DNA of 25,864 bases from a virus. Below are positions 5,877-25,356 of this stretch, one piece after another (positions within the stretch are counted from its first letter, which is position 1; each line of letters starts with the position of its first letter). The stretch lies in IMG/VR virus record IMGVR_UViG_3300027985_001934, positions 1-25,864 of that record, one strand, 5' to 3'. A model generated the notes under the pieces. The model had not been told where the DNA came from, ran no database searches, and saw only the letters and a list, made by a program, of their open reading frames with translations. A program made the translations under genes and the position numbers.

Positions 5877-5887
5877 GGGTGATATCT

Positions 5888-8749: not shown

Positions 8750-8839
8750 GTCCATATTTTGTGACTTGATTTTACAGCCGAAAAGAGTGATTAATGTAAG
8801 TATCGAAAGGCATAAATCATTTTATAGGAGATTTTGAAA

Positions 8840-9553
8840 ATGCAAGAATTTAACTTTAACGTAACAGGTGCAGAACGAAAAAGACTGGTGAGTGCAATCA
8901 GCGAAGTTTTAAATGCGCCGGCAAAATATCTCGGAGCACCATCCTTCGCATATGAAGTGGGTGGATATAATATCAGCATTGATGGGGTTGTCACTGGTGA
9001 AGAAAACCAGAACCTTTTTGCAGGTCTTGCAGAGTATGGATTTACACCAGAGCAGAAACTTCAAGAGGAAACTTCCGCCCAAACAGAGCCGGAAACAAAC
9101 AGACTGGTTATTGAATATCCACTCGACGGTTTTACACTTAAGGCAATCGACAACCTGACCAAGATGGTTTTCGCAAAAGAGGAGCTTATAAAAAAAGCAC
9201 TGGGAGCAGAGGAGTTGCCAATTCAAATCCCCGACGAACAGCACATTGCATTTCCTTGGTTTTCAATAGATTCAGACGGTGATACCGTCAACGCATATGC
9301 ACAATTTATCACCGCCTTGTGTAAAACAGCAAAAGATAAAAAGCGTGTCACATCCACAGCTCCTGAAGTCTTTGAAAATGAAAAATTCGCCATGCGGGTT
9401 TGGCTGATAAGTCTGGGTATGGTCGGCACGGAATTTAGTACAGCACGAAAGCTAATGATGAAAAATCTCAATGGGAATTCCGGCTGGCGTTATGGAAAAC
9501 CAGAAAAAATTATCCCTGCCACCGAGGGAAGTGAGGTGCAATGTGATGAATAA
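8840..9553 (+). CDS. Conserved phage-associated protein of unknown function
   Basis: A 237-residue soluble protein with no signal peptide or membrane segment. It opens MQEFNFNVTGAERKRLVSAI and has a predicted alpha/beta N-terminal half (about 1-75) with GGYNISIDGVVTG, an acidic, Gln/Glu/Thr-rich linker (about 75-92), and a C-terminal half rich in Lys and Glu that ends with LNGNSGWRYGKPE. From memory, similar clostridial phage proteins are deposited as 'virulence-related protein', a label that does not establish a function. ATG 8840 has AGGAG at 8826-8830, nine bases upstream; the TTG at 8834 is too close to that site. It overlaps the following DUF4314 gene by eight bases, so the two are co-translated. 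It belongs to the usual block between the methylase and the large terminase. Confidence 0.75.
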   Translation: MQEFNFNVTGAERKRLVSAISEVLNAPAKYLGAPSFAYEVGGYNISIDGVVTGEENQNLFAGLAEYGFTPEQKLQEETSAQTEPETNRLVIEYPLDGFTLKAIDNLTKMVFAKEELIKKALGAEELPIQIPDEQHIAFPWFSIDSDGDTVNAYAQFITALCKTAKDKKRVTSTAPEVFENEKFAMRVWLISLGMVGTEFSTARKLMMKNLNGNSGWRYGKPEKIIPATEGSEVQCDE

Positions 9554-9779
9554 TTTCCCTTCACAAGCTGAAATATTGCGCTTACGGACGAAATATCCGC
9601 CCGGCACACGGGTTGAACTGACCGCACCAATGAATGATCCATACATCAAGCTTAATGCAGGAGAACGCGCAACGGTATTGGGCGTGGACGATGCAGGGAA
9701 TATACTTTGTCGGTGGGATTGCGGATCGGGGCTGAATTTGATTACAGCTGTGGATGAGTTTAGGATTGTGGGTGAATAG
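9546..9779 (+). CDS. DUF4314 family protein
   Basis: A 77-residue protein with the pattern of DUF4314: RTKYPPGTRVEL (about 14-25), then MNDPY and LNAGERATVLGVDDAGNI (about 37-54), CRWDCGSGL (about 55-63) and a final DEFRI. The fold is probably a small SH3-like barrel judging by the alternating strand pattern; the function is unknown. ATG 9546 follows GAGGTG (9533-9538) and sits inside the last codons of the preceding gene, so translation is coupled. It is the last + strand phage gene before the antisense defence cassette. In related phages the large terminase usually follows closely, which places the left edge of the insertion just after this stop. Confidence 0.85.
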   Translation: MNNFPSQAEILRLRTKYPPGTRVELTAPMNDPYIKLNAGERATVLGVDDAGNILCRWDCGSGLNLITAVDEFRIVGE

Positions 9780-9935
9780 TATACAAAAAGGGTAGGAATA
9801 CAACTTATATAGGGAGTGTTGATACAAAAATACAATTCGGCTAGTCAGGGATGAACTTCTGCATCCATGCTCTCTATTTGTATGTTTCAATGCATTTTGT
9901 TAAGAAAAGTTTTTTGAATTTGCAAGGAATCAAAA

Positions 9936-12900
9936 TTACACAATTTCTTCCTCACACATTTTTTCCGCTTGCTCAATGATTAATTCAACTGCAGTAGGTT
10001 GTTTATCAGGCGGGTATTTATATTTTCTAAGAAGTCTCTTAATGGTAATTCTCATTTGTGCTCTAACACTTTCCCGAATATCCCAATCCACCTTGATATT
10101 GCTCTTTATACTGATGGTAAGCTCCTTAGCTATTTGCTTTAAAATGTCATTCTCATAGAATTCCTTAGCGGATTCATTCGAAGATATTGCATCATAAAAA
10201 GCTAACTCATAATCTGACAGCCCAAGTTCCGCTCCTCTCTTATGAATGTTGTTCATATCCTTCGCCATATCAACCAAAGCCTTAATGACCTCAGCAGTTT
10301 CCAAGGAGCGTTTTTCGTATTGGTTGACCGATGCTTCAAGCATCTCAGAGAATTTTTTGGCTTGTACTACGTTATTTTTCGCGATAGACTTGATTTTTCC
10401 ATCTAACAGTCTACGCAATAGTTCCAGTGCTAAGTTCTTTTGCGGTAGCCCTTTTACTTCCTCTAAAAACTCGTCTGATAGAATAGAAATGTCAGGTTTG
10501 TTTAACCCAACAGAAGCCAAAATATCTACAACCTCTTCCGAAATTACCGACTTAGAGACTAACTGGCTGATTTCATATTCAATCTGATCCCTTGTCTTTC
10601 TTGGCTTATCTTTCGGTAAAATCTTTATAATTCCAGACTTAACGGCTTTGAAATAGCTAATCTCAATATTGATCTGCAACGCCGCATCTGAAGTCGAACA
10701 CAAAGCGTACGCTTTACCAATCTCTGCGACCAAGTTTAAAAACTCTTTTTTATCGCCCTCATCCCTGCCAAGGACGAAATCGACACCTTTAATGATACAC
10801 TGTATGCGTTCTGATGATGTGCCTGTAAGGTATGATGAGTAATCTAAACCATGCAGAACCCTCTGTATTTGCTCGTATTTTTCTAACATCAAGTCGATAG
10901 CAATTTGTGGATCAATACCTGTTGTTTTCTTGTCCGATGGGGTATATTGAGCCAGTGCACTTCTGAGATTATCAGCAATTCCAATATAATCGACAACTAA
11001 CCCACCGGGCTTGTCCTTAAACACCCGATTAACTCTTGCAATTGCTTGCATTAAGTTGTGACCACTCATAGGTTTATCAATATACATCGTGTGTAAACAA
11101 GGCACATCAAAGCCGGTGAGCCACATATCACATACAATTACAATTTTCAATTCATCATTAACATCTTTCATCCTCTTTGCCAGCATCTTTTTCTGCAAAG
11201 CCGTAGTAGAATGTAGTTGAAAATCAGCGGGATCTGATGCAGCAGATGTCATTATAACTTTAATAACACCTTTATCGACCTCATCACTGTGCCATTCAGG
11301 GCGATGCTCAACAATCATTGAGTATAGTTTGACAGCTATCTTTCTTGACATAGCAACGAACATAACCTTGCCGTCGATTGCTTTTTGCCGCAGATCATAG
11401 TGTGTAAGGAAATCCTTAACAACAACATCAATTCTACCATCAGTTCCGACAATGGCTTCTAATCGAGCCCACTTGCGTTTTTGCGTTTCAGCGTAGGTTT
11501 CTTCTTGACCCTCAAGGATGTTTTCATACTCTTCATCAATACGAGGTTTTAAGTCTTGTGAAATATCCAATTTGGCAATACGGCTCTCATAATAAATGGG
11601 AACTGTAGTTTTGTCCTTGACCGCTTGTGTCAAGTCGTAAATGTCGATGTATTCACCAAAAAGTGCAGGGGTGTTTTTGTCGCTCAATTCGACGGGTGTG
11701 CCAGTAAATCCGATGAAGGATGCGTTTGGCAAAGCATCTCGCATATGTTTTGCAAAGCCAAAGGACACCTTGCCATCCTTTTCTTTTGCCTCTAAACCAT
11801 ACTGACTCCTATGGGCTTCATCTGCAATTACTACAACATTGAGCCTTGTGGTGAGTGTTGCAATGGACTGATCGCTTTCATCCGGTGAAAACTTTTGAAT
11901 TGTTGTGAAAATAATGCCACCCGCTTTAACGCTTAGCAGTTCACGCAGTTGACTTCGGGTTTCGGCTTGTTGAGGTGTTTGACGAAGATAGTCGGCACTC
12001 TTAGAAAACGTGGTAAAAAGTTGGTCATCAAGATCGTTTCTATCTGTTATGACAACAATCGTAGGGTTATTCAACTCCATAACCAACTGCCGTGTGTACA
12101 TTAGCATAGAAAAGCTTTTGCCACTTCCCTGAGTATGCCAAATAACACCCGCTTTTCTGCTACCATTTTCAGCAGTAGCAAGGTGCGTTTCGTAAAGAGC
12201 TTTATTGACCGCGAAATATTGATGATAGCCAGCCAAAATCTTGAAAGACTTTTCATCCTCATGGACGTAAAAGCTATACTCTGAGATAATGCTTAAAAAT
12301 CTTTTTTTATCCATCATTCCATACAACATTACTTGCAATTGTGAAAGAGACAAATGATTGTCGTTTTTTCCATCAATTGTTCTCCAAAACATAAAGCGAT
12401 CAAGGTCAGAAGTTATCGTTCCAACTTTTGCATTTATTCCGTCACTGGTTATCAAAAATGCGTTGTAGTTGAATAATGTAGGAATATCTCTTTTGTAAGT
12501 CTGTAATTGATTGAATCCATCTACAATGTCGGTATCTTCATTTGTGGCATTTTTTAATTCAATTACCACAAGGGGAATCCCATTCATAAATACAACAACA
12601 TCCGGTCTGCGTTCCTTACCATTTTCGATAATGGTGTATTGATTAACCGCTAAAAATTCATTATTTTCAATGTCATTGCCATCAAAAATATAAGCTTTTT
12701 CCGTTTTAATGCTACCATCTTCTTGACGAACTTCAACATCGATCCCGTCGGTAATAAACTTTTGAAAAGCAATGTTGTTTTGCACAATTGATAGACTTTG
12801 CTGACGAGTAATCTTTTTTACCAACTCAGCTAGGACAGAGTGAGAGTATTGTCTGTTAATGCGTTTGAGTGCGCTATGAAGACGTTCATAAAGAACCACA

Positions 12901-13031
12901 TCTCCAAAACCCTCTCGTTCGGCAAAACTCCCTCCCTTGGATATATCTGGTCCGTAGAGTGTTTGATAGCCTAAGTCCTGAAACCATTCTAAAGTTGCTT
13001 GTTCGAGATCGCTTTCTACAAACTGAGACAT
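9936..13031 (-). CDS. hsdR: Type I restriction enzyme, R (translocase/nuclease) subunit
   Basis: A 1031-residue motor and cutting subunit. The N-terminal HsdR nuclease domain shows RRPDVVVF (PD at about 143-144) followed by LVVIELK (about 154-160), the PD...ExK core. The superfamily 2 helicase follows: TQGSGKS (Walker A, about 300-306), VIADEAHRSQYG (DEAH box), GFTGTP (motif III) and QAIARVNR (motif VI). The C-terminal region is helical and probably contacts HsdM. A GTG at 13040 is in frame, but ATG 13031 has AGGTG at the proper distance. The start lies within the final codons of the FRG-domain gene (stop 13033), a tight coupling. With HsdM and HsdS it cleaves unmodified DNA at a distance from the recognition site after ATP-driven translocation. 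All key motifs are present. No clear terminator is seen after its stop. Confidence 0.95.
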   Translation of the reverse strand: MSQFVESDLEQATLEWFQDLGYQTLYGPDISKGGSFAEREGFGDVVLYERLHSALKRINRQYSHSVLAELVKKITRQQSLSIVQNNIAFQKFITDGIDVEVRQEDGSIKTEKAYIFDGNDIENNEFLAVNQYTIIENGKERRPDVVVFMNGIPLVVIELKNATNEDTDIVDGFNQLQTYKRDIPTLFNYNAFLITSDGINAKVGTITSDLDRFMFWRTIDGKNDNHLSLSQLQVMLYGMMDKKRFLSIISEYSFYVHEDEKSFKILAGYHQYFAVNKALYETHLATAENGSRKAGVIWHTQGSGKSFSMLMYTRQLVMELNNPTIVVITDRNDLDDQLFTTFSKSADYLRQTPQQAETRSQLRELLSVKAGGIIFTTIQKFSPDESDQSIATLTTRLNVVVIADEAHRSQYGLEAKEKDGKVSFGFAKHMRDALPNASFIGFTGTPVELSDKNTPALFGEYIDIYDLTQAVKDKTTVPIYYESRIAKLDISQDLKPRIDEEYENILEGQEETYAETQKRKWARLEAIVGTDGRIDVVVKDFLTHYDLRQKAIDGKVMFVAMSRKIAVKLYSMIVEHRPEWHSDEVDKGVIKVIMTSAASDPADFQLHSTTALQKKMLAKRMKDVNDELKIVIVCDMWLTGFDVPCLHTMYIDKPMSGHNLMQAIARVNRVFKDKPGGLVVDYIGIADNLRSALAQYTPSDKKTTGIDPQIAIDLMLEKYEQIQRVLHGLDYSSYLTGTSSERIQCIIKGVDFVLGRDEGDKKEFLNLVAEIGKAYALCSTSDAALQINIEISYFKAVKSGIIKILPKDKPRKTRDQIEYEISQLVSKSVISEEVVDILASVGLNKPDISILSDEFLEEVKGLPQKNLALELLRRLLDGKIKSIAKNNVVQAKKFSEMLEASVNQYEKRSLETAEVIKALVDMAKDMNNIHKRGAELGLSDYELAFYDAISSNESAKEFYENDILKQIAKELTISIKSNIKVDWDIRESVRAQMRITIKRLLRKYKYPPDKQPTAVELIIEQAEKMCEEEIV

Positions 13032-13032
13032 A

Positions 13033-14550
13033 TCAATCACCTACTCTTTCTGTTTCAACTTGGATCATTTTATTCACAATTAGCTCTGCCACTTGTTCGC
13101 ATAACTTGTTTTCTATCTTGAGCATTCTAAGAGCCTTCTTGATAATTAATTTGTTATAAGAGACCTTATCTGGAAAGTTAAACCAATCGGGTTGAGTAAA
13201 TAGATTCTTGCTGCGTTTGACTTCTCGTATTGCTCGTTCATTTAATTTCTTATCACCGATATGCGAAATTATGGCTTTTTCAATAATTGTGTTTTTATTT
13301 GTAACTCTACGATCAAAGGCTTCTTTAGCTTCCTCAATCTCCTGTGAAGCGTGCAAAACTTCGCTATTTTTGTTGGAAATCCGCTCTAATATTATATCGA
13401 TATCTTCTGCACTTTCTTTTGATAGCTGTTTTGTCGTTTGTTTTATGTATTGCGCCTGATGTTCAAGTTCTGGAAAAAGTGTTGCGTGACTAATCCCCAA
13501 CTGCTCAAGTTCTTTTAAAATATGTTCTTTGCATTCCGGTGGAATTACATAAGAGTGTAATTTTTCAACACGCTTTTCCGGCAAATCAAAGAGTTTGCGG
13601 TGATCATTTGGCAACTTAGTATATTCAGACTTAATATAGCTGATTGTTGCATTTTCGCCTTCACCAACCACATCTTCATCTAAAGTGATTTTCCCATCAC
13701 GAAGATCGCGAAGATAATCATTTCTCATGTTTTTTATATTCGAAACACATTTGTTTTTAATATCAAAAGGTATCTTTTTAAGTGCAAATAAGTCTGATTC
13801 TTGCTTATTATATATCAATCCAAATATGATGAAAGCTCCGGACTGGGCTTTAATTCTTGCGTTATTCATGCTTGAAACAACGCTTCTGTAGGGCTTCTCA
13901 ATCAAATATTGCACGAGTCGATCGTCATCAAAGTCTCCTTCCATATAAGGACGCAATTTCATTATAAATTTCGAGAGAGTAAAGCTATCTTCTTTGCAAA
14001 AATGCGCCAGTTCTGCCAATACGGTTATTCGATCATCGTCAGGTTCTAGTGGATCATCTGCAATAACAAATACCTCGCCGTAGGTTTTCTTTTCCAGTAC
14101 AGCATCGTTGATTATCGTCTGTGCGTTCTCAGAAAGAATTGCTTTTTCATTCTCAGAAATCAGAGTAGCTATTTTTTTATATTCTTTTACTTCATCGCTT
14201 TGCTCACAGGCAAAATACAATGCTACCAACGGATTGTTGGTTACATCAAGCAATCTACTCGGAAGACCATAGTGTTGCATTTTTGTAAGCTTTTCGTAAG
14301 CTGAATTTTGATTAGAAAAATCAGAGGGGCTGGAAAGCAACAATCGACTATACATATTGCTTTCCTCAGCAAGCCAGCCATTGCGAAAAATACTTGGGTG
14401 AACACTCCATTCCGCATTTCTTTGACCTCTAAAAAACAGACGACCGGGATTCTGTGAATTATCCAAAGCCTTGTCCAACAACTTTATCTCATTAACAAAT
14501 TCATGGACAGAGTGTATGAATTTAATTGCATTAATATTTTTCTCTTCCAA
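13033..14550 (-). CDS. FRG-domain protein embedded in the type I R-M operon
   Basis: A 505-residue protein. The N-terminal FRG domain is clear: FRGQ (40-43), then MQHYGLPSRLLD (91-102) and NPLVALYFA (105-113). FRG is named after its conserved Phe-Arg-Gly; its biochemical activity is not settled as far as I know. Residues about 330-505 are charged and helical with likely coiled-coil stretches (for example QEIEEAKEAFDRR near 415). The gene starts three bases after the hsdS stop and its last codons meet the hsdR start, so it is made together with the R-M subunits. No membrane segment is seen. It could be an abortive-infection effector guarded by the R-M system, a regulator of restriction, or a separate defence protein. 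R-M-linked ORFs are a known class, but I do not recognise this one as characterised. Confidence 0.85.
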   Translation of the reverse strand: MEEKNINAIKFIHSVHEFVNEIKLLDKALDNSQNPGRLFFRGQRNAEWSVHPSIFRNGWLAEESNMYSRLLLSSPSDFSNQNSAYEKLTKMQHYGLPSRLLDVTNNPLVALYFACEQSDEVKEYKKIATLISENEKAILSENAQTIINDAVLEKKTYGEVFVIADDPLEPDDDRITVLAELAHFCKEDSFTLSKFIMKLRPYMEGDFDDDRLVQYLIEKPYRSVVSSMNNARIKAQSGAFIIFGLIYNKQESDLFALKKIPFDIKNKCVSNIKNMRNDYLRDLRDGKITLDEDVVGEGENATISYIKSEYTKLPNDHRKLFDLPEKRVEKLHSYVIPPECKEHILKELEQLGISHATLFPELEHQAQYIKQTTKQLSKESAEDIDIILERISNKNSEVLHASQEIEEAKEAFDRRVTNKNTIIEKAIISHIGDKKLNERAIREVKRSKNLFTQPDWFNFPDKVSYNKLIIKKALRMLKIENKLCEQVAELIVNKMIQVETERVGD

Positions 14551-14553
14551 AAG

Positions 14554-15774
14554 CTATTCCTCCCGTACTGGTAGTTCACCACTCATCAGCTTTGGCAGAA
14601 GTGTATCCCTTATTTCAGCTAGTATAGCATTTTCTTCTTTTAGTAATGCTATTTTTTGCTCAATAAGCTTTGCTATTTCCTCAAATCGTAATTGTAATTC
14701 TATTGGTGGCACTACCATATCAAACATTTTAAACGCTTCAAATGGAAAGTTTTGACGAGTTGTCCCAATAGCATGATGCTTGATGTTTTCTAAAAACATT
14801 GGCTGCTTCATGTAATAGTAAAAAAAAGTAGGGGTAATGGATTCTTTCATCTCAAATACAATATAAATAGGGCTAACCAAACCGACCTCAAAATCGGTTA
14901 ACATTGCAATTGAGCCAATGTTTGCTCTGGCAGGATTGTACGCAACCTGATTTCGCCGTACTACTTTGTAATTTGTGGTGCTTTGACTATAAACCTGTTT
15001 TGTAAAGACATCATCAGATAGTTTGAATTCTCCTTCTTTAACGACTGAAAGTACAGGATAATCACTATTCTCGTTGTTTTTATTTTTAACTTCTGCTATA
15101 TTATCAAAAACAGTTGAACGTTGCCAACCTTTTGGAATGTCGTTTTCAGATTTCCCGGCTGTATTTGTATAATTGAAATTTCCGAACCAATTTTTATAAA
15201 TTAATTGAACTGTTTTCTTCAGCAAAGTGACTTGTTCATCATTATTGATAATTTTTGAAACTAAAGAGCGTATTTTTTTCGCAATACTTTTTTGAATTTC
15301 AACGTGAGGCAGTATTAATTCTATCTCATTTAACAATTTAATAGGTAACTGAGGTTGCGCGCTACCTGTCTTGATTTGTTCAATTTGATTTTTAACAAAG
15401 CTGGATTGGATTTGATAATATAAATATTCTGAGCAGTATTCATTTGGGTTTACACGTAAAATGACCATGCCAGAATTAATTCGAATATTATTAAATGGTA
15501 TTAACGCATTATAAAGAGCTGTGTTGCCTACAGTACCTCGAGTTGTTAAAATGATATCGTTCCTTAACAATTTTCCGTTTTTTAGCATTGAATCTTTTTC
15601 TTCGGTTATAAACATAGTGTTTTCAAAATTGAACCCACTAATTGTCACATTTTTGGCATTTAAAAATAAGCAAAATTCCTGATCATAAAAATCACTTTGC
15701 TGAGGATAGTTTTTCCCGCGATCTCCATCTATGATCAAAATGTTTGTATTTTTTATAGGTTTAGCATTATACAC
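14554..15774 (-). CDS. hsdS: Type I restriction enzyme, S (specificity) subunit
   Basis: A 406-residue protein with two target-recognition domains, each followed by a helical conserved region. The first half runs from IIDGDRGKNYP (about 14-24) to TGSAQPQLPIKLLNEIELILP and the first long helix ending in LIYKNWF (about 190-197). The second half begins DIPKGWQ and ends GTTRQNFPFEAFKMFDMVVPP, with a final coiled coil closed by IRDTLLPKLMSGEL. The two halves show the same order of elements, as expected for a pseudo-dimeric subunit reading a split DNA site. The start is GTG 15774 with GGAGG (15786-15782) seven bases upstream. It lies 15 bases after hsdM. HsdS sets the sequence that HsdM methylates and HsdR attacks; the recognition site cannot be read from the protein. 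Confidence 0.93.
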   Translation of the reverse strand: MYNAKPIKNTNILIIDGDRGKNYPQQSDFYDQEFCLFLNAKNVTISGFNFENTMFITEEKDSMLKNGKLLRNDIILTTRGTVGNTALYNALIPFNNIRINSGMVILRVNPNEYCSEYLYYQIQSSFVKNQIEQIKTGSAQPQLPIKLLNEIELILPHVEIQKSIAKKIRSLVSKIINNDEQVTLLKKTVQLIYKNWFGNFNYTNTAGKSENDIPKGWQRSTVFDNIAEVKNKNNENSDYPVLSVVKEGEFKLSDDVFTKQVYSQSTTNYKVVRRNQVAYNPARANIGSIAMLTDFEVGLVSPIYIVFEMKESITPTFFYYYMKQPMFLENIKHHAIGTTRQNFPFEAFKMFDMVVPPIELQLRFEEIAKLIEQKIALLKEENAILAEIRDTLLPKLMSGELPVREE

Positions 15775-15789
15775 GTTCTCACCTCCGAA

Positions 15790-17340
15790 TTATAGGGTAA
15801 ATCCAATGGTTTTAAGCTGTTTTTTCAATTCTGCGTCTAAGTTTTTCGATTCGCTCATAATATCAGAAAGTTTTTTTATCAACCTATTCATTTTTTCTTC
15901 AAATGGCTCGTTATCATCTTCAACCAGATTAATCCCTACATAACTTGCAGGGGTAAGGTTATAATCCTTCGCCTTGATTTCCTCTAATGTTGCAACTTTC
16001 CAAAAGCCTTGTTTATCTTCATAGCTAAAGACTGTACCATCTTTCTTTATCGCTTTATTTTCGTGGTTACGAAAAGAATGATAGGCAGCAGTTATGTCAT
16101 CAATTGCTTTCTGTGTAAGTTGTCGCTGTGTACGACTATCTTCATATTGTTCTGTTTCCATATTGCGTGCATCAATAAACAAAATTTCACCATGTCTGTC
16201 ACGATGTCCATTTTTCAATTTATTTCGCGCAACAAACCAAAGGCACACAGGAATAGAAGTCGTTGAGAACAATCCTCCCGGTAAGGTTACAATACAGTCG
16301 ATTTTATCATCCTCAATCAAATTCTTGCGAATAGTGTATTCGCTGATAGTAGAAGATGAAAGAGAGCCATTAGCCAGAACAAACCCAGCCGTTCCACTCG
16401 GTGCTAAGTGATAAAGCATATGCAAAATCCAAGCATAGTTGGCATTTCCTGTTGGTGGGATTCCATACTTGCCCCAACGAGCGTCATCAATTAGGCGTTC
16501 GCCACCCCAGTCGCTGATGTTAAATGGAGGATTAGCCATGATGTAGTCCGCCTTTAAGCTCTTGTGCTGGTCATTGTGGAACGAGTCTGCATTCTGTTGC
16601 CCCAAATTTGCTTCAATGCCACGGATAGCTAAGTTCATTCTGCAAAGCTTCCAAGTATTGTAGTTTGACTCTTGTCCGTAAATAGCAAGTTGACCATCAA
16701 GTCTACCTTGTCTATCCTCAACAAATTTTTCGCTTTGTACAAACATACCTCCCGAACCGCAGCAGGGGTCGTACACACGCCCATCGTGGGGTTCAATCAT
16801 AGCAACAATAAGTTCAACAACACTTCTTGGAGTGTAGAATTCTCCACCGAGCTTACCTTCGGCACGAGCAAATTTGCCCAAGAAGTATTCATATACAGTG
16901 CCTAATGTATCTTTGCTGGCATCACTACCAATTTCAAGTTCAGAAAGCAAATCGACAAGCCTTCCTAACGATGTTTTATCCAAGGATGCTCTTCCAAAAT
17001 CTTTAGGAAGCACACCACGCAGAGGAGAGTTTTCTTTTTCAATCTCATACATAGCATTGTCAATCACTTGACCAATAGTAGGGTCTTTAGCTTTGTTTTT
17101 GATATTATCCCAGCGCGCATTTTGAGGAACCCAAAATACATTTTTTGCAACATATTCATCTCTATCTTCAGGATCGGCATATTCGTCCTGCGAAACTTCT
17201 TCATATGCTCTTTCAAAGCTGTCAGAAATATACTTAAGAAAAATCAACCCTAAGCAAACGTGTTTATACTCGGCAGAATCCATATTGTTGCGTAACGAAT
17301 CCGCCATTTTCCATAAATCTTCTTTTCTCAACTCAGCCAT
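15790..17340 (-). CDS. hsdM: Type I restriction enzyme, M (N6-adenine methylase) subunit
   Basis: A 516-residue methylase. The N-terminal HsdM helical domain (MAELRKEDLWKMADSLR... through about 130) is followed by the catalytic domain with GGEFYTPR (165-172), DPCCGSGG (191-198, AdoMet binding motif I) and NPPFN (270-274, catalytic motif IV), the gamma-class order for N6-adenine. The C-terminus (about 440-516) contains a helical segment that would contact HsdS. ATG 17340 has GGAGG seven to eight bases upstream. It starts 24 bases after the xre stop and 15 bases before hsdS. With HsdS it makes the modification enzyme; with HsdR added, the restriction complex. The length and motif set are normal, with no sign of decay. 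Confidence 0.96.
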   Translation of the reverse strand: MAELRKEDLWKMADSLRNNMDSAEYKHVCLGLIFLKYISDSFERAYEEVSQDEYADPEDRDEYVAKNVFWVPQNARWDNIKNKAKDPTIGQVIDNAMYEIEKENSPLRGVLPKDFGRASLDKTSLGRLVDLLSELEIGSDASKDTLGTVYEYFLGKFARAEGKLGGEFYTPRSVVELIVAMIEPHDGRVYDPCCGSGGMFVQSEKFVEDRQGRLDGQLAIYGQESNYNTWKLCRMNLAIRGIEANLGQQNADSFHNDQHKSLKADYIMANPPFNISDWGGERLIDDARWGKYGIPPTGNANYAWILHMLYHLAPSGTAGFVLANGSLSSSTISEYTIRKNLIEDDKIDCIVTLPGGLFSTTSIPVCLWFVARNKLKNGHRDRHGEILFIDARNMETEQYEDSRTQRQLTQKAIDDITAAYHSFRNHENKAIKKDGTVFSYEDKQGFWKVATLEEIKAKDYNLTPASYVGINLVEDDNEPFEEKMNRLIKKLSDIMSESKNLDAELKKQLKTIGFTL

Positions 17341-17364
17341 TTCACTTACCTCCGTTATATAATT

Positions 17365-17685
17365 TCACATCTGCGCCCAAATCTGTTTATCATTAGATTT
17401 TTCTTTTGTGGTGCGTATTATTTGCAACACTGCTGTGTTTCCCATAAGATACTCTTTAATATCAACGGGGAGGTCGTTACGCTCCTTTGCTGCTAAATCA
17501 AAAAGTATATTTCTAATGTCGGGATTATCGTCAAGTTTTAGTTCTTGAATTATTTTTTCAAGCAACTCCTTCTCGGGTGGTTTATTATTACCTTTTTCAA
17601 TATCGCTAATGTAGGTCGGTGTTTTGCCTAATGTTTTTGCAAGTTCTCGAATGGAAATACCGTTTGCTTTTCTTACTGCCCTCAT
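17365..17685 (-). CDS. XRE-family HTH regulator of the R-M operon
   Basis: A 106-residue protein with an N-terminal Cro/C1-type helix-turn-helix at about residues 10-35 (ISIRELAKTLGKTPTYISDIEKG). The C-terminal half is helical and may dimerise. It is the first full gene of the R-M operon, 24 bases before hsdM, so it probably controls timing of restriction after entry into a new host. ATG 17685 is the only standard start in frame before the stop upstream, but no good ribosome binding site is near. Its ATG overlaps the TGA of a short upstream frame (ATGA), so it may be translated by coupling. Compared with relatives the N-terminus is a few residues short. A perfect palindrome upstream of the promoter is a candidate binding site. 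Confidence 0.88.
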   Translation of the reverse strand: MRAVRKANGISIRELAKTLGKTPTYISDIEKGNNKPPEKELLEKIIQELKLDDNPDIRNILFDLAAKERNDLPVDIKEYLMGNTAVLQIIRTTKEKSNDKQIWAQM

Positions 17686-17771
17686 AAACTTGCAAATATA
17701 AACTCATCGCTCTCAGGATAAATTAAAATCTCATCTTTAATTAAGCCTCTATCCACTTTCTCTTTCGGCAA
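17682..17771 (-). CDS. Possible 29-codon leader peptide coupled to the xre gene
   Basis: On the - strand a TTG at 17771, with AGGTAG a few bases upstream, opens a 29-residue frame (a GTG at 17756 is an alternative start). Its TGA overlaps the ATG of the xre gene as ATGA. The sequence is acidic and aromatic near the end (PESDEFIFASL). It lies between the near-consensus promoter and xre. Function is unknown; it may exist only to deliver ribosomes to the next gene, which lacks its own good binding site. Confidence 0.35.
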   Translation of the reverse strand: MPKEKVDRGLIKDEILIYPESDEFIFASL

Positions 17772-17811
17772 GAAAACTACCTACATAAATAAGTTAGTCA
17801 GCAAATATAAT

Positions 17812-17841
17812 ATTATAACATATTTAAAAGCTTAGTGTCAA
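17812..17841 (-). promoter_or_regulatory. Near-consensus promoter of the R-M operon
   Basis: On the - strand TTGACA (17841-17836) and TATAAT (17817-17812) are separated by 18 bases, and TG sits one base ahead of the -10 element (extended -10). Both hexamers match consensus exactly. It drives leader, xre, hsdM, hsdS, FRG gene and hsdR. Such strength without control would be costly, which supports repression by the XRE protein. Confidence 0.88.
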
Positions 17842-17862
17842 AAAACAATTTATGACGTTTTG

Positions 17863-17880
17863 TAAGTAATTAATTACTTA
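17863..17880. promoter_or_regulatory. 18-bp perfect palindrome upstream of the R-M promoter
   Basis: TAAGTAATTAATTACTTA is a perfect inverted repeat centred between 17871 and 17872, about 22 bases upstream of the -35 element. It is a candidate operator for the XRE regulator, or an upstream activating site given its position. AT-rich palindromes can arise by chance, so this is only a candidate. Confidence 0.45.
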
Positions 17881-17968
17881 ATTTCAGCTTTGCATATAAA
17901 ACAAATAATCTGCATTCTCATCATGTGTTTCTATTAAAAAGCTGGCTGGGCGAAATCTGTAAGTTACA

Positions 17969-18220
17969 TTAAATCATTACTGATTTTTTGTTTTTCATAC
18001 AGACAATATAAATATTTCCCACGCAGTGAGCGAGAATCATTACAAAATCAGATATACTTTCACACGCACTGCTACACATATTTTTAGGCTTTTGACACTC
18101 ATTAGCGATAAACGTCAGCTCGACCCTCATCTTCCAAGGATGATTTATAGGATTTTCATACCTAACAATTAAGTCATCATACCGAGCTATTTTAATTAAG
18201 GTTGTTATAACATTTTTCAT
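17969..18220 (-). CDS. Small hypothetical protein downstream of the SIR2-Argonaute gene
   Basis: An 83-residue frame starting at ATG 18220 with AGGAAA about ten bases upstream. It lies 87 bases after the SIR2-Argonaute stop, in the same direction. It contains six cysteines (for example NECQKPKNMCSSACES, about 39-54) and a hydrophobic segment near 58-73 (FVMILAHCVGNIYIVC). I do not recognise it. Just past its stop another frame reads as protein-like for 29 residues (17884-17973), so it may be a shortened remnant of a longer gene. It could be a real small partner of the defence cassette or a decayed gene. Confidence 0.4.
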   Translation of the reverse strand: MKNVITTLIKIARYDDLIVRYENPINHPWKMRVELTFIANECQKPKNMCSSACESISDFVMILAHCVGNIYIVCMKNKKSVMI

Positions 18221-18307
18221 GTTTTATTTCCTAATATATTATTGCTATGATATGCCTTTATTTATTTAAACATAATTGGAAGCTTTTAAAAAATCTCGTA
18301 AATGCTT

Positions 18308-21300
18308 TTACATAAAAAAACGATAATCATAAATAGATCCTTCATATTGCGATAGTAGGCATCCAATACGAGCTATTTCATTGGAGGATTCTATTGTACA
18401 AGGCAACTTAGAGTAAAGACCGAAGCTGTTCCAATTCATTTTGGATAGTCCTAAAATTTCAGTTGCAATTTGTGCCATATTTCCCAAACCGTAATGTTTG
18501 ACGATCTTTAGCGGAAGCGGAATGGTCTTTCCGCCTTGAATGTACTTAAATTTAGGATTTTTTATTGACGGTGCGATACCATGAGTATACAAAAGCATAG
18601 TATTTTCATTCAATGGAAAACATAATCCCCGTCGAACTGGATATCCATCTATACTAAATTCCTTAGAAAATTCAAAACATCGAATATCGTCCTCATAATT
18701 GATTTCTAATAGTTCAATATCAATAATCCCTGCGGATGAAAGGCACTTCACAAGCCCGTCAACTTCCTCTTTTCTAAATGGAGTTCGTTTATGAATTACC
18801 ACTCTCTTTGGGAGTTCAGTAAAAGACTTATAAAACAATTCCTTTATATTAAGACCAAGCTTATACGCTTCATTTTCTGTCAAAAAAGGGTTCTTCCTGT
18901 GGTCTAAAACAACATCATTGAGCTTCGAAAGCTTATACTTTAATCCTTGCCCGTCTGCGGAATATATGTGACTACATCCCACGACTACATCAGTTCCCAT
19001 ATCAGATTTATTTATGCTGTAGCCAATTCCAGCAAAAGCAGTGTCTTGACGCAAACCAGAAATCACCCATGGTATGCGACAAGATTTCACATATATCGCA
19101 AGGGATAGTGCCCACATTATTTGGCAACGCATATTACTTTCAAGTGTTTTCTCTCTGATAAATTGCGTTGCAATATTCTTTTGAACAGCGTATGCTTTAA
19201 TAAAGTTGTGTAAATCATAGTTTTCAAATTTATCTGAAAATGATGTTAACCATTCAAAATCTTTGGGTATGTAGATAAGAATAACATCGGTTTGAAGTAA
19301 ACTTAATTTATCTATCTGGTGTATGATGGTTTCTCCAAATTCTCTTGCCGCTGCTTTTATGTCAGATTCACTTGGATCATTCATATTCACCCACTGCGGT
19401 GAAGTAGCAAGAGGGATATTTAATCCTACGTTAAAGGCATCGTAAAAGCCCGGAAATGGTAAGACGTACTCTATGTTATACTTCACTTCGGAATGCTGAT
19501 TATTAAGTTCGCTCAAGAAAGCATAAAACTTAGTTGAATCGTTCTGAGGACAAATGACACCTATGTTAATAGATGATCGCAACACCTTACTATTTAAATT
19601 GAAGTCGTAGGGGCTGTTTTGCAATAGTCCTCTCATAGGGTGAAAATCATTAACCCTTTTATTTTGGTGTGGATTAAAGAAAGTTAGTTCTGGATCACGA
19701 CATTCAATTCCGTTCATGATTACTCGCCTGGAATCAATTGAGTCAGGTAAATTTAATTGATAACCACTTAAATTATTTCTTATTCCAATTAAAGCACTAT
19801 TCGAACCAATAGTAAAAGGGAAATTGTCTTTGCTTGTAGCCGGGAAATATGCTTTCACTGTGTTGCTACCTATAATAGTATTTTTCCATTTATCTATATA
19901 ATTGTTAATACATAAATTTGGCTTGCTACCATTAATCCTTACTGAAAAAGCGTCTGCAAATAATTTTATAACCGATTTTGTATATCTATCCGAATCTCTA
20001 AAATGGTATGCAGGAACAAAAGATAAGTATGTATATTTGCAGTCAAATTTCAAAGAAAGTCGAACACCAAAATAAGCATGAATTGGAGAGTTTTCTATTT
20101 GATAAAAGAATTCATTCTTTGAGTCTTTTGTATCCCAGATTTTATCCTTAGAAAACGATAATCCGCTTTTGTCAGCTAATATTCTTGTTACCGCTCTGAG
20201 TAATAATTCTCTAAAAGTCCCATTGCTTAATACAAGCTCTCTGGAAAATGGTGCGACATCGATGCTGCCCATCAGTCGCTTGGAACACACTTCAGCTATT
20301 TTTTCTTTTTCACCCCAAGCATATACTAAATCCTTAAAAGGTACCGCAATTATATTATGTTCAGATAGTGACTTGCACACGTTCCATGACTTTTCATCAG
20401 AAGTGTAGCTCAATTTGAATTGGTAGCAGGTAGAAGGAAAGTTGATTGGGTATAAATTAGATTTAACAATCTTTTTCAATATACCGTCTGATTGTTGAAA
20501 TGGTGTTGAAGTAAAATCTGTGTGATTTCCCAATGTATTCAAAAGGGAATCTATTCTATTGAGAAAAGGAGCATTGTCACTCATGCAGTGGCGTGATAAC
20601 AACAGCATAGTTTTGTCAAATCCATCCGTGGGAATATAAAATCCTTGCCTTCCGTTGGCGACCATAGAATTTAACAAATCCTGAACAGAAGAAGAACAGT
20701 CTGCTCCATATCCACACCAATATAGTCTGCCTGCTCCAGGCTGAGAATAAGCATCTTTTAGTGCTTTCATTAGAGATTTGTCACGCCCACTATATCCGAT
20801 AACGATTAGATTTCTCTTTGCAAGCTCATGTTGCAATGCTTTTATCAGAACATCGCTTTGTGAATCAAGTTCAGCGGTAGTGTTTTTTAATGGTCCATAT
20901 TTGTAATCGCCATGAAGGGATACGCAAAGTAACTCCTTGTCTACATCGGATCTGTAAATACGTTCCTGTGATTCCAATGTAACTTCCACAGGTGTCAAGC
21001 TGTATTGATGTGCCGCCTTTAGAGATAAACCATCGAAATTAGTTGTCCAGATGCTTTTTATCCAACCAATCTCAGCAAGCATGGCCGCCAAGTGGTACCC
21101 TAAACTTGGGCTCTTGTTTTCAGTTAAATGTTGAAAATATTTTCTTCTGTCATCATTAATAGGGAACGCTTTTTCAGCGAAAAAAGAATACTCTTCATCG
21201 GAATTTTCCAGGGGGTAAACCCTTTGTGAATTTAACCAGTTTTGAATCGCAATGCGGACGTTGTCAATCTTTATGTTCTTAAATGAATCTGCTGATATAG

Positions 21301-21463
21301 GATTTTGAGAAGTAAATATTTCATGCTTCCAATCCCAGATACAATCAGAAGCAGAAGGTACTCCCGACTCCACAGAAGCTCCTGCACCTAAAAGCAGCGA
21401 GTGCGTCGTATCCTTATTTTGTTTAAGTGAACGAATAAACTCGTCAAATTTTAGTGTTTGCAT
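18308..21463 (-). CDS. Single-chain SIR2-APAZ-MID-PIWI short prokaryotic Argonaute
   Basis: A 1051-residue fusion. The N-terminal SIR2 domain shows LLLGAGASVESGVP (23-36), TTNFDGL (140-146), VSLHGDY (181-187, probable catalytic H184 with N142) and VIGYSGRD (221-228), so NAD hydrolysis is likely. The APAZ-like middle spans about 330-590. The MID-PIWI part begins near PELTFFNP (591-598) and HPMRGLL (608-614). MID carries Y758, K762, Q767 and K793, which match the 5'-end pocket pattern. PIWI runs from about 800 to the end. The first PIWI catalytic Asp position reads AGIGYS (811-816) and the usual HRDG reads HKRT (891-894), so slicing is unlikely. Known SIR2-APAZ/short Argonaute systems use a guide to sense invading DNA and then deplete NAD+. 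Here both parts are one chain. ATG 21463 has AAAGGAG at the usual distance. Confidence 0.9.
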   Translation of the reverse strand: MQTLKFDEFIRSLKQNKDTTHSLLLGAGASVESGVPSASDCIWDWKHEIFTSQNPISADSFKNIKIDNVRIAIQNWLNSQRVYPLENSDEEYSFFAEKAFPINDDRRKYFQHLTENKSPSLGYHLAAMLAEIGWIKSIWTTNFDGLSLKAAHQYSLTPVEVTLESQERIYRSDVDKELLCVSLHGDYKYGPLKNTTAELDSQSDVLIKALQHELAKRNLIVIGYSGRDKSLMKALKDAYSQPGAGRLYWCGYGADCSSSVQDLLNSMVANGRQGFYIPTDGFDKTMLLLSRHCMSDNAPFLNRIDSLLNTLGNHTDFTSTPFQQSDGILKKIVKSNLYPINFPSTCYQFKLSYTSDEKSWNVCKSLSEHNIIAVPFKDLVYAWGEKEKIAEVCSKRLMGSIDVAPFSRELVLSNGTFRELLLRAVTRILADKSGLSFSKDKIWDTKDSKNEFFYQIENSPIHAYFGVRLSLKFDCKYTYLSFVPAYHFRDSDRYTKSVIKLFADAFSVRINGSKPNLCINNYIDKWKNTIIGSNTVKAYFPATSKDNFPFTIGSNSALIGIRNNLSGYQLNLPDSIDSRRVIMNGIECRDPELTFFNPHQNKRVNDFHPMRGLLQNSPYDFNLNSKVLRSSINIGVICPQNDSTKFYAFLSELNNQHSEVKYNIEYVLPFPGFYDAFNVGLNIPLATSPQWVNMNDPSESDIKAAAREFGETIIHQIDKLSLLQTDVILIYIPKDFEWLTSFSDKFENYDLHNFIKAYAVQKNIATQFIREKTLESNMRCQIMWALSLAIYVKSCRIPWVISGLRQDTAFAGIGYSINKSDMGTDVVVGCSHIYSADGQGLKYKLSKLNDVVLDHRKNPFLTENEAYKLGLNIKELFYKSFTELPKRVVIHKRTPFRKEEVDGLVKCLSSAGIIDIELLEINYEDDIRCFEFSKEFSIDGYPVRRGLCFPLNENTMLLYTHGIAPSIKNPKFKYIQGGKTIPLPLKIVKHYGLGNMAQIATEILGLSKMNWNSFGLYSKLPCTIESSNEIARIGCLLSQYEGSIYDYRFFM

Positions 21464-21814
21464 AATGAACTCCTTTTCAAATTAATTTTTGTTCCTTTTG
21501 TTTATTAAAATTCAGACATCTTCTAAATATATTGCAATGTGCTATTAATAACATATATCCAACTTTCCATTATGGTATTAATATAAGTACTACTGAACTG
21601 CGCATTGGTACAATAAAAGTACAAGGATCTAACCATATGCATAGGTTGAAAACTTGTGCTCATTTTATTACAATAAGTGGAGCAATAGTCTAGCATAACT
21701 TCGCATAGATTTCGCATCCGATTTTTGTAAGGATCTCACAATTTGCAATTAAAACTTCGTGATTTAACACATTCAAAATTATGCTAAGAAGCTCACTAGA
21801 TACAGGAACTTTAT
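21464..21814 (-). other. Gap of about 350 bases between the 129-residue gene and SIR2-Argonaute
   Basis: No convincing gene, terminator or consensus promoter is seen. On the - strand two frames read as weakly protein-like: 44 codons directly after the 129-residue gene in a shifted frame (21824-21690), and a 64-codon frame (21717-21523) with no ribosome binding site. The ribosome binding site of SIR2-Argonaute lies at the right-hand start of the gene. The stretch may be a long leader, a non-coding RNA, or remains of a gene. Confidence 0.4.
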
Positions 21815-22204
21815 CTATTGAGAACTATCAATTTTTAGCTTTATTTTTTGCCAGCATAGTTCTTTAATTTCGCTGTTCCTAATTCTCCTATTCTTTTTAG
21901 GCTCGTTTTCTACTATCTTTTCAGCCAATTTCTTTAAATCTTGCGGAGAAACCGCATTTGAAATCTCTGCCATCCAAAAAAGTAGCTCTCCGCATGGCGT
22001 AAAAGGATATGCTTTGTTTTCTTCTTTTTCTAAACAGTAACTCATAATATGCTGCCATTGGCTTGGGATATCACCAGATTTTACATTTGATAAATAACCT
22101 GTTCCATAACGCTGATGAAATCCCCCTTTTATTAAATATGTCGTAATCTCACAGGGGCTGTTTTCTTTGCTTTCATAAAAACTCTTTACTTGTCCAAACG
22201 TCAT
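21815..22204 (-). CDS. Hypothetical 129-residue protein leading the SIR2-Argonaute unit
   Basis: A soluble 129-residue protein with no signal peptide or membrane segment. It has an aromatic and Gly-rich centre (KGGFHQRYGTGYLSNV, about 26-41, then WQHIMSYCLEKEENK), a PCGELLFWMAEIS segment near 70-82, and a basic C-terminus (KNRRIRNSEIKELCWQKIKLK). I do not recognise the family and see no helix-turn-helix. ATG 22204 is preceded by AGGAGG at good spacing, and a good promoter lies about 125 bases upstream. It is the first gene of the right-hand defence unit, 351 bases ahead of SIR2-Argonaute in the same direction. It could be a regulator, an inhibitor of the NADase, or an unrelated defence gene. 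Its stop may be premature, since a coding-like frame continues past it. Confidence 0.75.
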   Translation of the reverse strand: MTFGQVKSFYESKENSPCEITTYLIKGGFHQRYGTGYLSNVKSGDIPSQWQHIMSYCLEKEENKAYPFTPCGELLFWMAEISNAVSPQDLKKLAEKIVENEPKKNRRIRNSEIKELCWQKIKLKIDSSQ

Positions 22205-22228
22205 TTTTACCTCCTAATTTCTGATTTG

Positions 22229-22286
22229 TGATCTGCAAATTAAAAAGCAGATCATCTGTTAATAAAACAATTATTTATAGCAGATC
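22229..22286 (-). promoter_or_regulatory. Hairpin and repeated GCAGATC motif in the 129-residue gene leader
   Basis: TGATCTGC (22229-22236) and GCAGATCA (22247-22254) are perfect 8-bp inverted arms with a 10-base loop, and GCAGATC recurs at 22280-22286. All lie between the promoter and the ribosome binding site of the 129-residue gene. They may form a leader hairpin close to the ribosome binding site or be operator sites for a regulator. Confidence 0.45.
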
Positions 22287-22329
22287 TAAATGCTTATTAT
22301 CTTCAAATTCCGACATTTTCTACTATTTC

Positions 22330-22358
22330 ATTTTACTACTTATTACACAAATAGTCAA
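22330..22358 (-). promoter_or_regulatory. Promoter of the SIR2-Argonaute unit
   Basis: On the - strand TTGACT (22358-22353) and TAAAAT (22335-22330) are 17 bases apart, about 125 bases upstream of ATG 22204. It marks the right end of the leftward defence cassette; rightward phage DNA resumes with the large terminase at 22472. Confidence 0.75.
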
Positions 22359-22471
22359 ATATTTCCCGCAAAAAAATTGGACAATTTCTATTACATTTTT
22401 ATTGCACATATAATTTAATAGCCTACCGGGGCTCTGTAAGAACTTCGGTTTTATTCGTCGGAGGTGGCTAT

Positions 22472-24107
22472 GTGGAAGAAATTCGGAGCATAAAAAATTA
22501 CAAACCCTCTCATTTTAAAGCGGAGGGTTCAATATATAAGTCACGCTTTGCGGACTCAGCGGTGTTTTTTGTCAACAATCTGCGTCATACCAAGGGCCGC
22601 TGGTACGGCGAGCCGTTTGAGCTTATTGACTGGCAGGAGCAGATTATTCGCGACCTGTTTGGTATCGTGCGTCGATATGACGAGTGCCGTCAATTCCGTA
22701 CCGCATATGTTGAAATCCCCAAAAAGCAGGGTAAATCAGAGCTTGCGGCGGCGGTAGCACTTCTACTTACTTGTACGGATGCGGAGCGTGGTGGGGAAAT
22801 TTATGGTTGTGCGTCAGACCGCAGTCAGGCAAGTATTGTTTTTGATGTGGCTGTACATATGATTGATCAGTTTCCGGCATTTAAAAAGTTTATAAACCTG
22901 AATATTGCGCAAAAGCGTATGACCTTCACGCCCCTTGACAGCTTTTATCAGGTGCTTTCTGCGGATGCTTACACAAAGCATGGTTTAAATGCTCATGGCG
23001 TAATTTTTGATGAACTGCACGCTTTGCCGGACAGACGGCTTTTCGACGTTATGACCAAGGGGTCAGGTGATGCCAGAGAACAGCCACTTCATTTTATTAT
23101 AACAACAGCCGGTGTGGACAGAAATTCTATCTGTTGGGAAATGCATCAAAAAGCCGAGGATGTTCTTCTGGGTAGAAAAATTGATCCAACCTTTTACCCT
23201 GTTATATACTCTGCCGCTGATGATGACGACTGGACTTCTGAGGAAGTCTGGCGCAAAGTCAACCCATCTCTTGGAATAACCGTTACTATGGAAACTATGC
23301 GAAATTCTTATGAAGATGCTAAACTGAACCCTATAAATGAGAATATCTTTCGCCAGTTGCGCCTTAAAACAATCGGTGCGTTGGATGAATATGGAGAAAT
23401 GGGACAGCTGTGCCTTTAGATTTGACACAAAACTTCTTGAAAGCAGAGCGTGCTACGGTGGCTTGGATTTATCCAGCACTACGGATATTACAGCATTTGT
23501 ACTAGTATTTCCGCCGGAGGACGAGGAAGATAAATATATCGTTTTGCCATTTTTCTGGATACCCGACGAATGCCTTGAAACAAGAGTGCGTCGCGACCAT
23601 GTTCCTTATGATATGTGGAAAGCGCAAGGCTTTCTTAACACTACAGAGGGCGACGTAATTCATTATTCATTTGTGGAAAAACATATCGAGGAGCTTGGCA
23701 AAAAATATAACATCAAAGAAATAGCTTTTGACCGATGGGGCGCTTGGGAAATGACTCAGAACCTTGAAAATGCTGGGTTTACTGTCGTTCCATTTGGTCA
23801 GGGGTATAAGGATATGAGCCCGGCGACAAAAGAACTAATGCGTCTGATACTGGAGAAAAAAATCGCACATGCTGGCAATCCTCCTCTGCGCTGGATGGTG
23901 GACAATTTATATGTAAGCGCCGATGCGGCTGGGAATATCAAGCCAAATAAGCAAAAGGCAACGGAGCGTATCGACGGTGCTGTGGCGACAATTATGGCGC
24001 TTGACCGTGCAATTGTTCATGAAGATCACGAGAGCATATATGATAAGCGCGGAATGATGGTTCTCGATCCAAATCACCCGGATGGCTATTATTACGGTAA
24101 CAAGTGA
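22472..24107 (+). pseudogene. terL: Terminase large subunit, frameshifted
   Basis: The first part (22472-23419, 315 residues) starts at GTG with GGAGG (22460-22464) seven bases upstream. It carries the ATPase: PKKQGKS (83-89, Walker A type) and GVIFDE (176-181, Walker B). The frame then breaks at about 23364-23372. The intact sequence should run from RQLRL into KQSVRWMNMEKW; here the original frame drifts into unrelated residues and stops at 23419. The second part continues in another frame to 24107 with the nuclease domain: GGLDLSSTTD, AFDRWGA and IDGAVATIMALDRA, holding the acidic residues that cut DNA. The gap fits loss of about four residues plus a frame change, roughly 11 bases. Family members keep both domains in one chain to pump and cut DNA into the prohead. 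As written, ATPase and nuclease are separated. Confidence 0.9.
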
Positions 24108-24117
24108 GGTGGCTGAA

Positions 24118-25356
24118 ATGGGACTATTTTTTAATAAAAAGCCAAAAACTACAGACAGCCTATCCACCAGCCGAAGTATTTTCTGGGGTGGCTCAACCTC
24201 CGGTACATATGTAAATGAAACTACCGCTTTGCAAACAGCGGCGGTTTCTTCCTGTGTAAGGGTAATTTCGGAGGCGATTGCCTGTCTGCCTCTTCAAGTT
24301 TACCGATATGACCAAAACGGCTCCAGAATCATTCCGGAGCATTACCTATATAATCTTTTACATAATGCCCCGAACGCTGAAATGACCAGCTTTGTGTTTC
24401 GTGAAACCCTCATGAGTCATCTACTTTTATGGGGCAATGCCTACGCGCAGATTATCCGTGACGGTGGAGGTCGGGTGCGGGCGCTGTATCCTTTACTTCC
24501 AAGTAAAATGGATGTTTGTCGAAATGAAAATGGACAGATTTATTACACCTATTGGCGTGACAGAGACGAAAGTCGTCCTAATGAAAAAAGTGGCGGAGTG
24601 GTTCTTGCAAAAGAAGATGTTTTGCACATTCCGGGACTGAGCTATGACGGGCTGGTGGGATATTCCCCGATTGCTCTTGCCAAAAATGCAGTAGGAATGG
24701 CTATTGCCACTGAAGAATATGGCGCAAGCTTTTTTGCAAATGGTGCAAATCCCGGCGGTATTTTAGAACACCCCGGAACAATTAATAATCCAGGGAATAT
24801 CAGAGATTCATGGGAAGCGATTTACAAGGGTGCTAAAAATTCCGGCAAGGTCGCTGTTTTGGAGGACGGACTAAAATTTCATCAGATAAGTATTCCGCCA
24901 GAACAGGCGCAATTTTTAGAAACACGCAAATTTCAGCTGAACGAAATCGCCCGAATTTTCCGTATTCCGCCACACATGATTGGTGATTTAGAAAAGAGTA
25001 GCTTTTCCAACATAGAACAGCAATCCCTGGAATTTGTGAAATACACACTTGACCCTTGGGTGGTGCGCTGGGAGCAGTCTATGCAACAAGCTCTTATACT
25101 GCCTTCTGAAAAAGAAGCTGTATTTATTAAATTTAATCTTGACGGTCTGCTTCGGGGCGACTATGAAACCCGCATGAAAGGCTATGCAATCGGCATACAA
25201 AATGGATTTTTGAGCCCTAACGATATCCGCAGGCTTGAAAATCTCAACGAAATTCCTGATGAACAGGGCGGCAACAATTATATGGTCAACGGAAATATGG
25301 TAAAGCTTGCTGATGTCGGTGCGGCATACGGTAAAAACGGAGGCGATAAGGTATGA
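24118..25356 (+). CDS. Phage portal protein, HK97 family
   Basis: A 412-residue portal. It opens MGLFFNKKPK, followed by TALQTAAVSSCVRVISEAIACLPLQVYR (about 36-63), NAYAQIIRDGGGRVRALYPL, HIPGLSYDGLVGYSPI and FRIPPHMIGDLEKSSFSNIEQQ (about 280-305), all hallmarks of the HK97-type portal family. Twelve copies form the ring through which DNA enters the capsid and to which the terminase docks. ATG 24118 has GAGGTGG overlapping the terminase stop; a longer in-frame start at 24082 lies inside the terminase gene and is unlikely. The stop overlaps the protease start as ATGA. The gene is intact, in contrast to both terminase genes. Confidence 0.95.
   Translation: MGLFFNKKPKTTDSLSTSRSIFWGGSTSGTYVNETTALQTAAVSSCVRVISEAIACLPLQVYRYDQNGSRIIPEHYLYNLLHNAPNAEMTSFVFRETLMSHLLLWGNAYAQIIRDGGGRVRALYPLLPSKMDVCRNENGQIYYTYWRDRDESRPNEKSGGVVLAKEDVLHIPGLSYDGLVGYSPIALAKNAVGMAIATEEYGASFFANGANPGGILEHPGTINNPGNIRDSWEAIYKGAKNSGKVAVLEDGLKFHQISIPPEQAQFLETRKFQLNEIARIFRIPPHMIGDLEKSSFSNIEQQSLEFVKYTLDPWVVRWEQSMQQALILPSEKEAVFIKFNLDGLLRGDYETRMKGYAIGIQNGFLSPNDIRRLENLNEIPDEQGGNNYMVNGNMVKLADVGAAYGKNGGDKV

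What the first reader, a model, noticed from the sequence alone, without database searches (positions are those of the whole stretch)
18308..21463. Single-chain SIR2-APAZ-Argonaute with a dead PIWI but intact NADase motifs
Most studied SIR2 short Argonautes are two-gene systems. This one fuses sensor and effector. SIR2 keeps N142 and H184 while the PIWI has lost at least two catalytic Asp positions. From memory this matches the fused short-Argonaute branch, which is less characterised. A prophage host adds the question of how the system spares its own carrier.
Basis: partly seen in the sequence, partly recalled or inferred. Interest (0 to 1): 0.75.

Follow-up and report, generated by a model that had tools for sequence, protein, structure and literature searches.

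The report
Phage-borne single-chain SIR2 short Argonaute
This gene makes a known type of bacterial suicide-defence protein, an RNA-guided sensor fused to an enzyme that should destroy NAD+, and here it sits in a 12.6-kb block of antiviral genes carried by a virus of gut-type Clostridia.

Summary
ORF 18308-21463 (minus strand, 1051 aa) is one chain of SIR2, APAZ, MID and PIWI. SIR2 residues N142 and H184 are present in all 28 aligned sequences that cover them. None of the four PIWI catalytic positions is kept: TtAgo D478/E512/D546/D660 align to S816/gap/R893/N1028. Structure models place 579-1051 on GsAgo (Z 37) and about 332-562 on the GsSPARSA APAZ domain (Z 18). The fused layout is an established clade (S1A), so this is a new member of a known kind.

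The surroundings are more interesting. A 12.6-kb minus-strand block (type I restriction-modification, FRG-domain protein, HTH, SPARSA) lies between two core genes of a Clostridia temperate-phage lineage. One relative is nearly empty there and another carries Kiwa-like genes, so the site is a defence-cargo hotspot. Two other prophages of the same type have fused SPARSA linked to them, next to restriction-modification genes. The phage's terminase is split by an 11-base deletion, so this copy may be defective. The bin looks like Bacteroidales but the contig looks clostridial, so the host label is probably wrong.

Most likely mechanism, not tested here: RNA-guided DNA sensing switches on the SIR2 NADase and causes abortive infection.

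The parts
18308..21463 (-). Fused SIR2-APAZ-MID-PIWI short Argonaute (SPARSA), 1051 aa
20567..21463 (-). SIR2 part, about residues 1-299; N142 and H184
   Evidence: PF13289 at 137-255; GsSir2 match 3-292; residues kept in 28 of 28
19730..20566 (-). APAZ part as modelled alone, residues 300-578
   Evidence: GsSPARSA APAZ is the top structural match, Z 18.3
18311..19729 (-). MID-PIWI part, residues 579-1051; H752, K756, Q767, K793 kept, catalytic tetrad lost
   Evidence: GsAgo Z 37.1; TtAgo alignment; conservation
9936..13040 (-). HsdR, type I restriction subunit
   Evidence: PF04313, PF11867; PADLOC REase_I 1109 bits
13033..14550 (-). FRG-domain protein (PADLOC candidate PDC-S15)
   Evidence: PF08867 E 8e-21; PDC-S15 E 2e-87
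14554..15774 (-). HsdS, specificity subunit
   Evidence: PF01420
15790..17340 (-). HsdM, modification subunit
   Evidence: PF02384, PF12161
17365..17685 (-). HTH_3 regulator in front of hsdM; consensus promoter match (12 of 12) at 17841-17812
   Evidence: PF01381; promoter scan
21815..22204 (-). 129-aa ORF of unknown function upstream of SPARSA
   Evidence: no relatives found
9755..22377 (.). Whole cargo block, 12.6 kb, against about 0.22 kb at the same site in phage contig L115
   Evidence: flank alignments
525..7717 (+). Phage replication side: DNA polymerase A, D5-type primase, HNH, ParB-methylase
8834..9553 (+). Amidoligase-like phage core gene bordering the hotspot
   Evidence: phrog_2443 E 1.6e-48; conserved order
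22472..24107 (+). Terminase large subunit, broken into two frames by an 11-base deletion near 23355
24082..25356 (+). Portal protein
   Evidence: PF04860 E 3.6e-124

Best explanation
A fused (clade S1A-type) SPARSA defence protein, carried with a type I restriction-modification operon as cargo in a defence hotspot of a Clostridia temperate phage. By analogy with GsSPARSA, a short RNA guide is held by the MID pocket and pairs with invader DNA. The inactive PIWI does not cut but signals within the same chain, and the N-terminal SIR2 is released to hydrolyse NAD+, so the infected cell dies or stops growing before the invader multiplies. Carried by a phage, it would protect the lysogen against competing phages and plasmids. 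Shown here: domains, conserved residues, insertion site, recurrence in related prophages. Inferred: guide loading, NADase activation, protection.
For: Full-length profile and PDB sequence matches. Structure model matches GsAgo at 579-1051 (Z 37.1, rmsd 2.4 A, 444 residues); APAZ modelled alone matches GsSPARSA APAZ (Z 18.3). N142 and H184 kept in 28 of 28; the GsSir2 pair N142 and H186 is needed for NADase activity (PMC10781750). MID residues H752, K756, Q767, K793 invariant. Catalytic tetrad lost. Phage site nearly empty in L115, without a large insert in L114, with Kiwa-like genes in L034. Fused SPARSA linked to two more prophages of this type.
Against: No activity was measured. No tree with S1A, S1B and S2 references was built. 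The SIR2-APAZ half superposes on GsSPARSA as one unit only with 16 A rmsd, so the domain arrangement differs or is poorly modelled. The contig comes from a probably mis-sorted metagenome bin and its phage terminase is broken, so the carrier may be decaying.
Confidence: 0.85

Rival explanations
1. A decaying passenger: the block was once defence cargo, but the phage is defective and SPARSA is no longer selected or expressed here.
For: terL is split by an 11-base deletion; truncated SPARSA copies exist in relatives such as L023 and L027.
Against: The SPARSA frame is intact over 1051 codons, keeps every family-invariant active-site residue checked and has a ribosome site. The terL lesion could be an assembly error.
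Confidence: 0.25
2. A host-chromosome defence island into which phage genes recombined, rather than cargo of the phage.
For: Most relatives of SPARSA lie in chromosomes without this phage's genes nearby; no integrase or att site is in the contig.
Against: The block interrupts a conserved phage gene order exactly, with phage genes on both sides and a nearly empty site in L115.
Confidence: 0.1
3. A DNA-guided or otherwise different system: the SIR2-Ago chain works by blocking or sequestering target DNA, with NAD+ loss secondary.
For: Guide type and activity cannot be read from sequence; fused members are little studied in the papers held.
Against: Closest solved relatives bind guide RNA and target ssDNA and act through NAD+ loss (PMC10474274, PMC10781750).
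Confidence: 0.07

Closest known systems
GsSPARSA (Geobacter sulfurreducens GsSir2-APAZ / GsAgo; PDB 8in8, 8jkz, 8y7z)
   Same: Same domains in the same order, catalytic Asn and His in SIR2, inactive PIWI, MID H, K, Q and K aligned
   Different: GsSPARSA is two chains from two genes; this is one chain, 27-28% identical over MID-PIWI
Clade S1A fused SIR2-APAZ-pAgo (Ryazansky 2018, PMC6299218; PMC11156904)
   Same: Identical architecture, about 1050 aa; 29 sequences aligned here
   Different: Nothing in architecture; carriage in a phage hotspot was not found in the papers searched
Prophage defence hotspots of P2/P4-like elements (Rousset 2022, PMC9122126)
   Same: Variable defence cargo between two conserved phage genes
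   Different: Different phage lineage (Clostridia, next to terL); 12.6 kb of cargo here against about 1-5 kb there

Membership tests
SPARSA (SIR2-APAZ short Argonaute) | N-terminal SIR2 with catalytic Asn and His | tested here: met
   PF13289 E 3.7e-9; N142 and H184 in 28 of 28
SPARSA (SIR2-APAZ short Argonaute) | APAZ domain | tested here: met
   APAZ-only model: GsSPARSA APAZ is the top match, Z 18.3, 216 residues, rmsd 3.3 A
SPARSA (SIR2-APAZ short Argonaute) | MID-PIWI without PAZ | tested here: met
   579-1051 matches GsAgo, Z 37.1
SPARSA (SIR2-APAZ short Argonaute) | PIWI catalytic tetrad lost | tested here: met
   S816, gap, R893, N1028 against TtAgo D478, E512, D546, D660
SPARSA (SIR2-APAZ short Argonaute) | Guide RNA and target DNA trigger NAD+ hydrolysis | not testable with these tools
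   Needs an enzyme assay
Clade S1A | SIR2-APAZ and MID-PIWI in one polypeptide | tested here: met
   One 1051-aa ORF; full-length PADLOC models
Clade S1A | Falls in the S1A branch of a pAgo tree | not tested
   The tree holds only fused homologs, no S1B, S2A or S2B references
Phage defence hotspot | Different defence cargo, or none, between the same two core genes in related phages | tested here: met
   Insert here, about 0.22 kb in L115, no large insert in L114, KwaA and KwaB-like genes in L034
Integrated, functional prophage | Integrase, attachment sites, intact packaging genes | tested here: inconclusive
   No integrase or host flank in the contig; terL broken by an 11-nt deletion

The most novel reading that the evidence does not exclude
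Fused SPARSA joined to restriction-modification genes is a recurrent cargo module of one lineage of Clostridia temperate phages (the group whose deposited relatives are called Ca. Heliusvirales), acquired more than once and at more than one site, so that these phages use an RNA-guided NADase to keep rivals out of their lysogens while sparing themselves.
Probability: 0.4. Interest if true: 0.55.

Novelty: new member of a known kind. Interest (0 to 1): 0.38.

Why it matters
The protein itself adds little to a known clade. The useful part is the setting. An RNA-guided abortive-infection enzyme carried by a phage lineage poses a testable self/non-self problem: why does replication of the induced carrier not trigger its own NADase? 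The conserved site between the amidoligase-like gene and terL also gives an anchor for mining defence systems in gut phages.

Tried and rejected
Active long-type PIWI: rejected by the TtAgo alignment. Two-gene system: rejected, one frame. Bin taxonomy as host: doubted. Other contigs of the bin show a 5-base ribosome site in 0 of 38 genes against 8 of 16 in the window (Fisher p 1.2e-5), and SPARSA hits in the bin's family and order group with a Bacteroidales sequence while the window nests in Clostridia. Operon partner for SPARSA: the 129-aa ORF 21815-22204 has no relatives in viral contigs, phages or seven related genomes. Match among predicted viral protein structures (BFVD): nothing under E 0.001. 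att repeat of the tmRNA in L028: only a 14-base match, not convincing. Plasmid carriage: no near DNA match. Zaremba 2022 could not be read.

Full report
Observation. ORF 18308-21463 on the minus strand encodes 1051 aa in one open frame and occurs once in the own assembly with no internal stop. Pfam finds SIR2_2 at 137-255. PADLOC's full-length pAgo model covers residues 2-1051 and its SIR2-PNTD1-PNTD2 model covers 1-1051. The best sequence matches in the PDB are the two chains of GsSPARSA: GsAgo for 605-1051 and GsSir2-APAZ for 3-292.

Active sites. N142 and H184 lie at the stated positions and are present in all 28 aligned sequences that cover them. In GsSir2 the equivalent pair N142/H186 is required for NADase activity (PMC10781750). 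Profile alignment of the family's PIWI to TtAgo, taken from plasmid pTT27, gives D478 to S816, E512 in a gap, D546 to R893 and D660 to N1028. The TtAgo catalytic numbering is from general knowledge; the residues at those numbers were checked to be D, E, D, D. MID residues H752, K756, Q767 and K793 are invariant and line up with H, K, Q and K of GsAgo in the alignment. That these four are the guide 5'-phosphate pocket is from general knowledge of pAgos, not tested here.

Structure. The full model (mean pLDDT 81, pTM 0.66) matches GsAgo over 579-1051 with Z 37.1 and rmsd 2.4 A. Residues from about 322 to 1051 also follow long Agos such as TtAgo (Z 25.5). The SIR2-APAZ half aligns to GsSPARSA as one piece only with 16 A rmsd, so the APAZ region was modelled alone (mean pLDDT 84). 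Its best match is the GsSPARSA APAZ domain, Z 18.3, rmsd 3.3 A over 216 residues.

Relatives. 26 loci in bacterial genomes, one viral contig and weaker hits in phages and plasmids were found. The full-length ones are single chains of about 1033-1054 aa. The window protein groups with Papillibacter (79% identity) and a Clostridia bin (81%). SIR2-pAgo fusions were noted in 2009 and counted in 2018 (PMC2743648, PMC6299218) and are named clade S1A (PMC11156904). From memory, one fused member has been tested in cells (Zaremba 2022, Paraburkholderia graminis); that paper is not held, so this was not checked.

Setting. Left of the block are phage DNA polymerase, D5-type primase, HNH, a ParB-methylase and an amidoligase-like gene; right of it are terminase large subunit and portal. 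Close phage relatives share this order. In contig L115, window positions 9754 and 22378 correspond to 4337 and 4559, so 12.6 kb here stands in place of about 0.22 kb. L034, with 51-87% protein identity across the shared genes, has KwaA and a KwaB-like gene at that site. Across related phage contigs the distance from the last upstream marker to terL is at most 8.6 kb elsewhere; the window's 12.9 kb is the longest. Other cargo there includes an rRNA adenine dimethylase family gene and transposases. A second insert, around the gene at 7827-8609, sits between the methylase and the amidoligase-like gene.

Recurrence. L028 is part of a 54.9-kb contig of the same phage type. Its fused SPARSA lies between a phage-type repressor and tmRNA/smpB, behind HamA-like, LmuB-like and type III restriction-modification genes. 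Clostridia bin INTA.CYC.007 (RZZU01000002.1) has the same phage type, with SPARSA 25 bp after hsdR, a phage-type repressor beyond hsdM, and serine integrases at the far end followed by what read as host nusG and ribosomal protein genes. The prophage boundary on the SPARSA side was not mapped in either, so these show linkage, not proven cargo; the two SPARSA proteins are 78% identical and may share one acquisition. A restriction subunit gene sits within 160 bp upstream of SPARSA in L005, L007, L009, L012, L020 and L028; L009 and L020 are near-identical. HsdS and type III endonucleases near pAgos were reported before (PMC6299218), and complete type I systems in a Clostridium's prophages too (PMC11318856).

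Mechanism. The most likely working is that of GsSPARSA: guide RNA in MID, target DNA pairing, activation of SIR2 by the non-cutting PIWI, NAD+ loss and abortive infection (PMC10474274, PMC10781750). In the fused chain the sensor and effector cannot separate. How the carrier phage is spared is unknown; low copy number of a resident prophage is a guess.

Cautions. terL lacks 11 bases relative to L034, L115 and L114, which splits it into two frames: a defective phage or an assembly error. The bin looks like Bacteroidales by ribosome-site use and by the placement of its relatives' SPARSA, while the contig looks clostridial; mis-binning is the simplest reading. No integrase is in the contig. The homolog sample was drawn with the window's own peptides, so it leans to close relatives.

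Verdict. An ordinary member of a known clade in an unusual and testable place.

Noticed in passing
window 22472-24107: Terminase large subunit split by an 11-base deletion relative to three related phage contigs.
   Followed up: yes
window 7827-8609: AP_endonuc_2 / sugar-isomerase-like gene on the minus strand, inserted between the methylase and the amidoligase-like gene; absent from L115.
   Followed up: partly
L034 12442-14012: Kiwa-like pair (KwaA and KwaB-like) at the same phage site as the window's defence block.
   Followed up: yes
L172 8841-9590: rRNA adenine dimethylase family gene (possibly erm-type resistance) upstream of terL in a related phage contig.
   Followed up: no
window 13033-14550: FRG-domain protein encoded inside the type I restriction-modification operon, between hsdS and hsdR.
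   Followed up: no
window 1-25864 (G000 contig C467): Contig probably mis-binned: ribosome-site use unlike the rest of the bin, and its SPARSA nests in Clostridia.
   Followed up: yes
L009, L012, L020, L241: Fused SPARSA as the gene right after hsdR in what looks like a restriction-modification operon, 25-90 bp away.
   Followed up: partly
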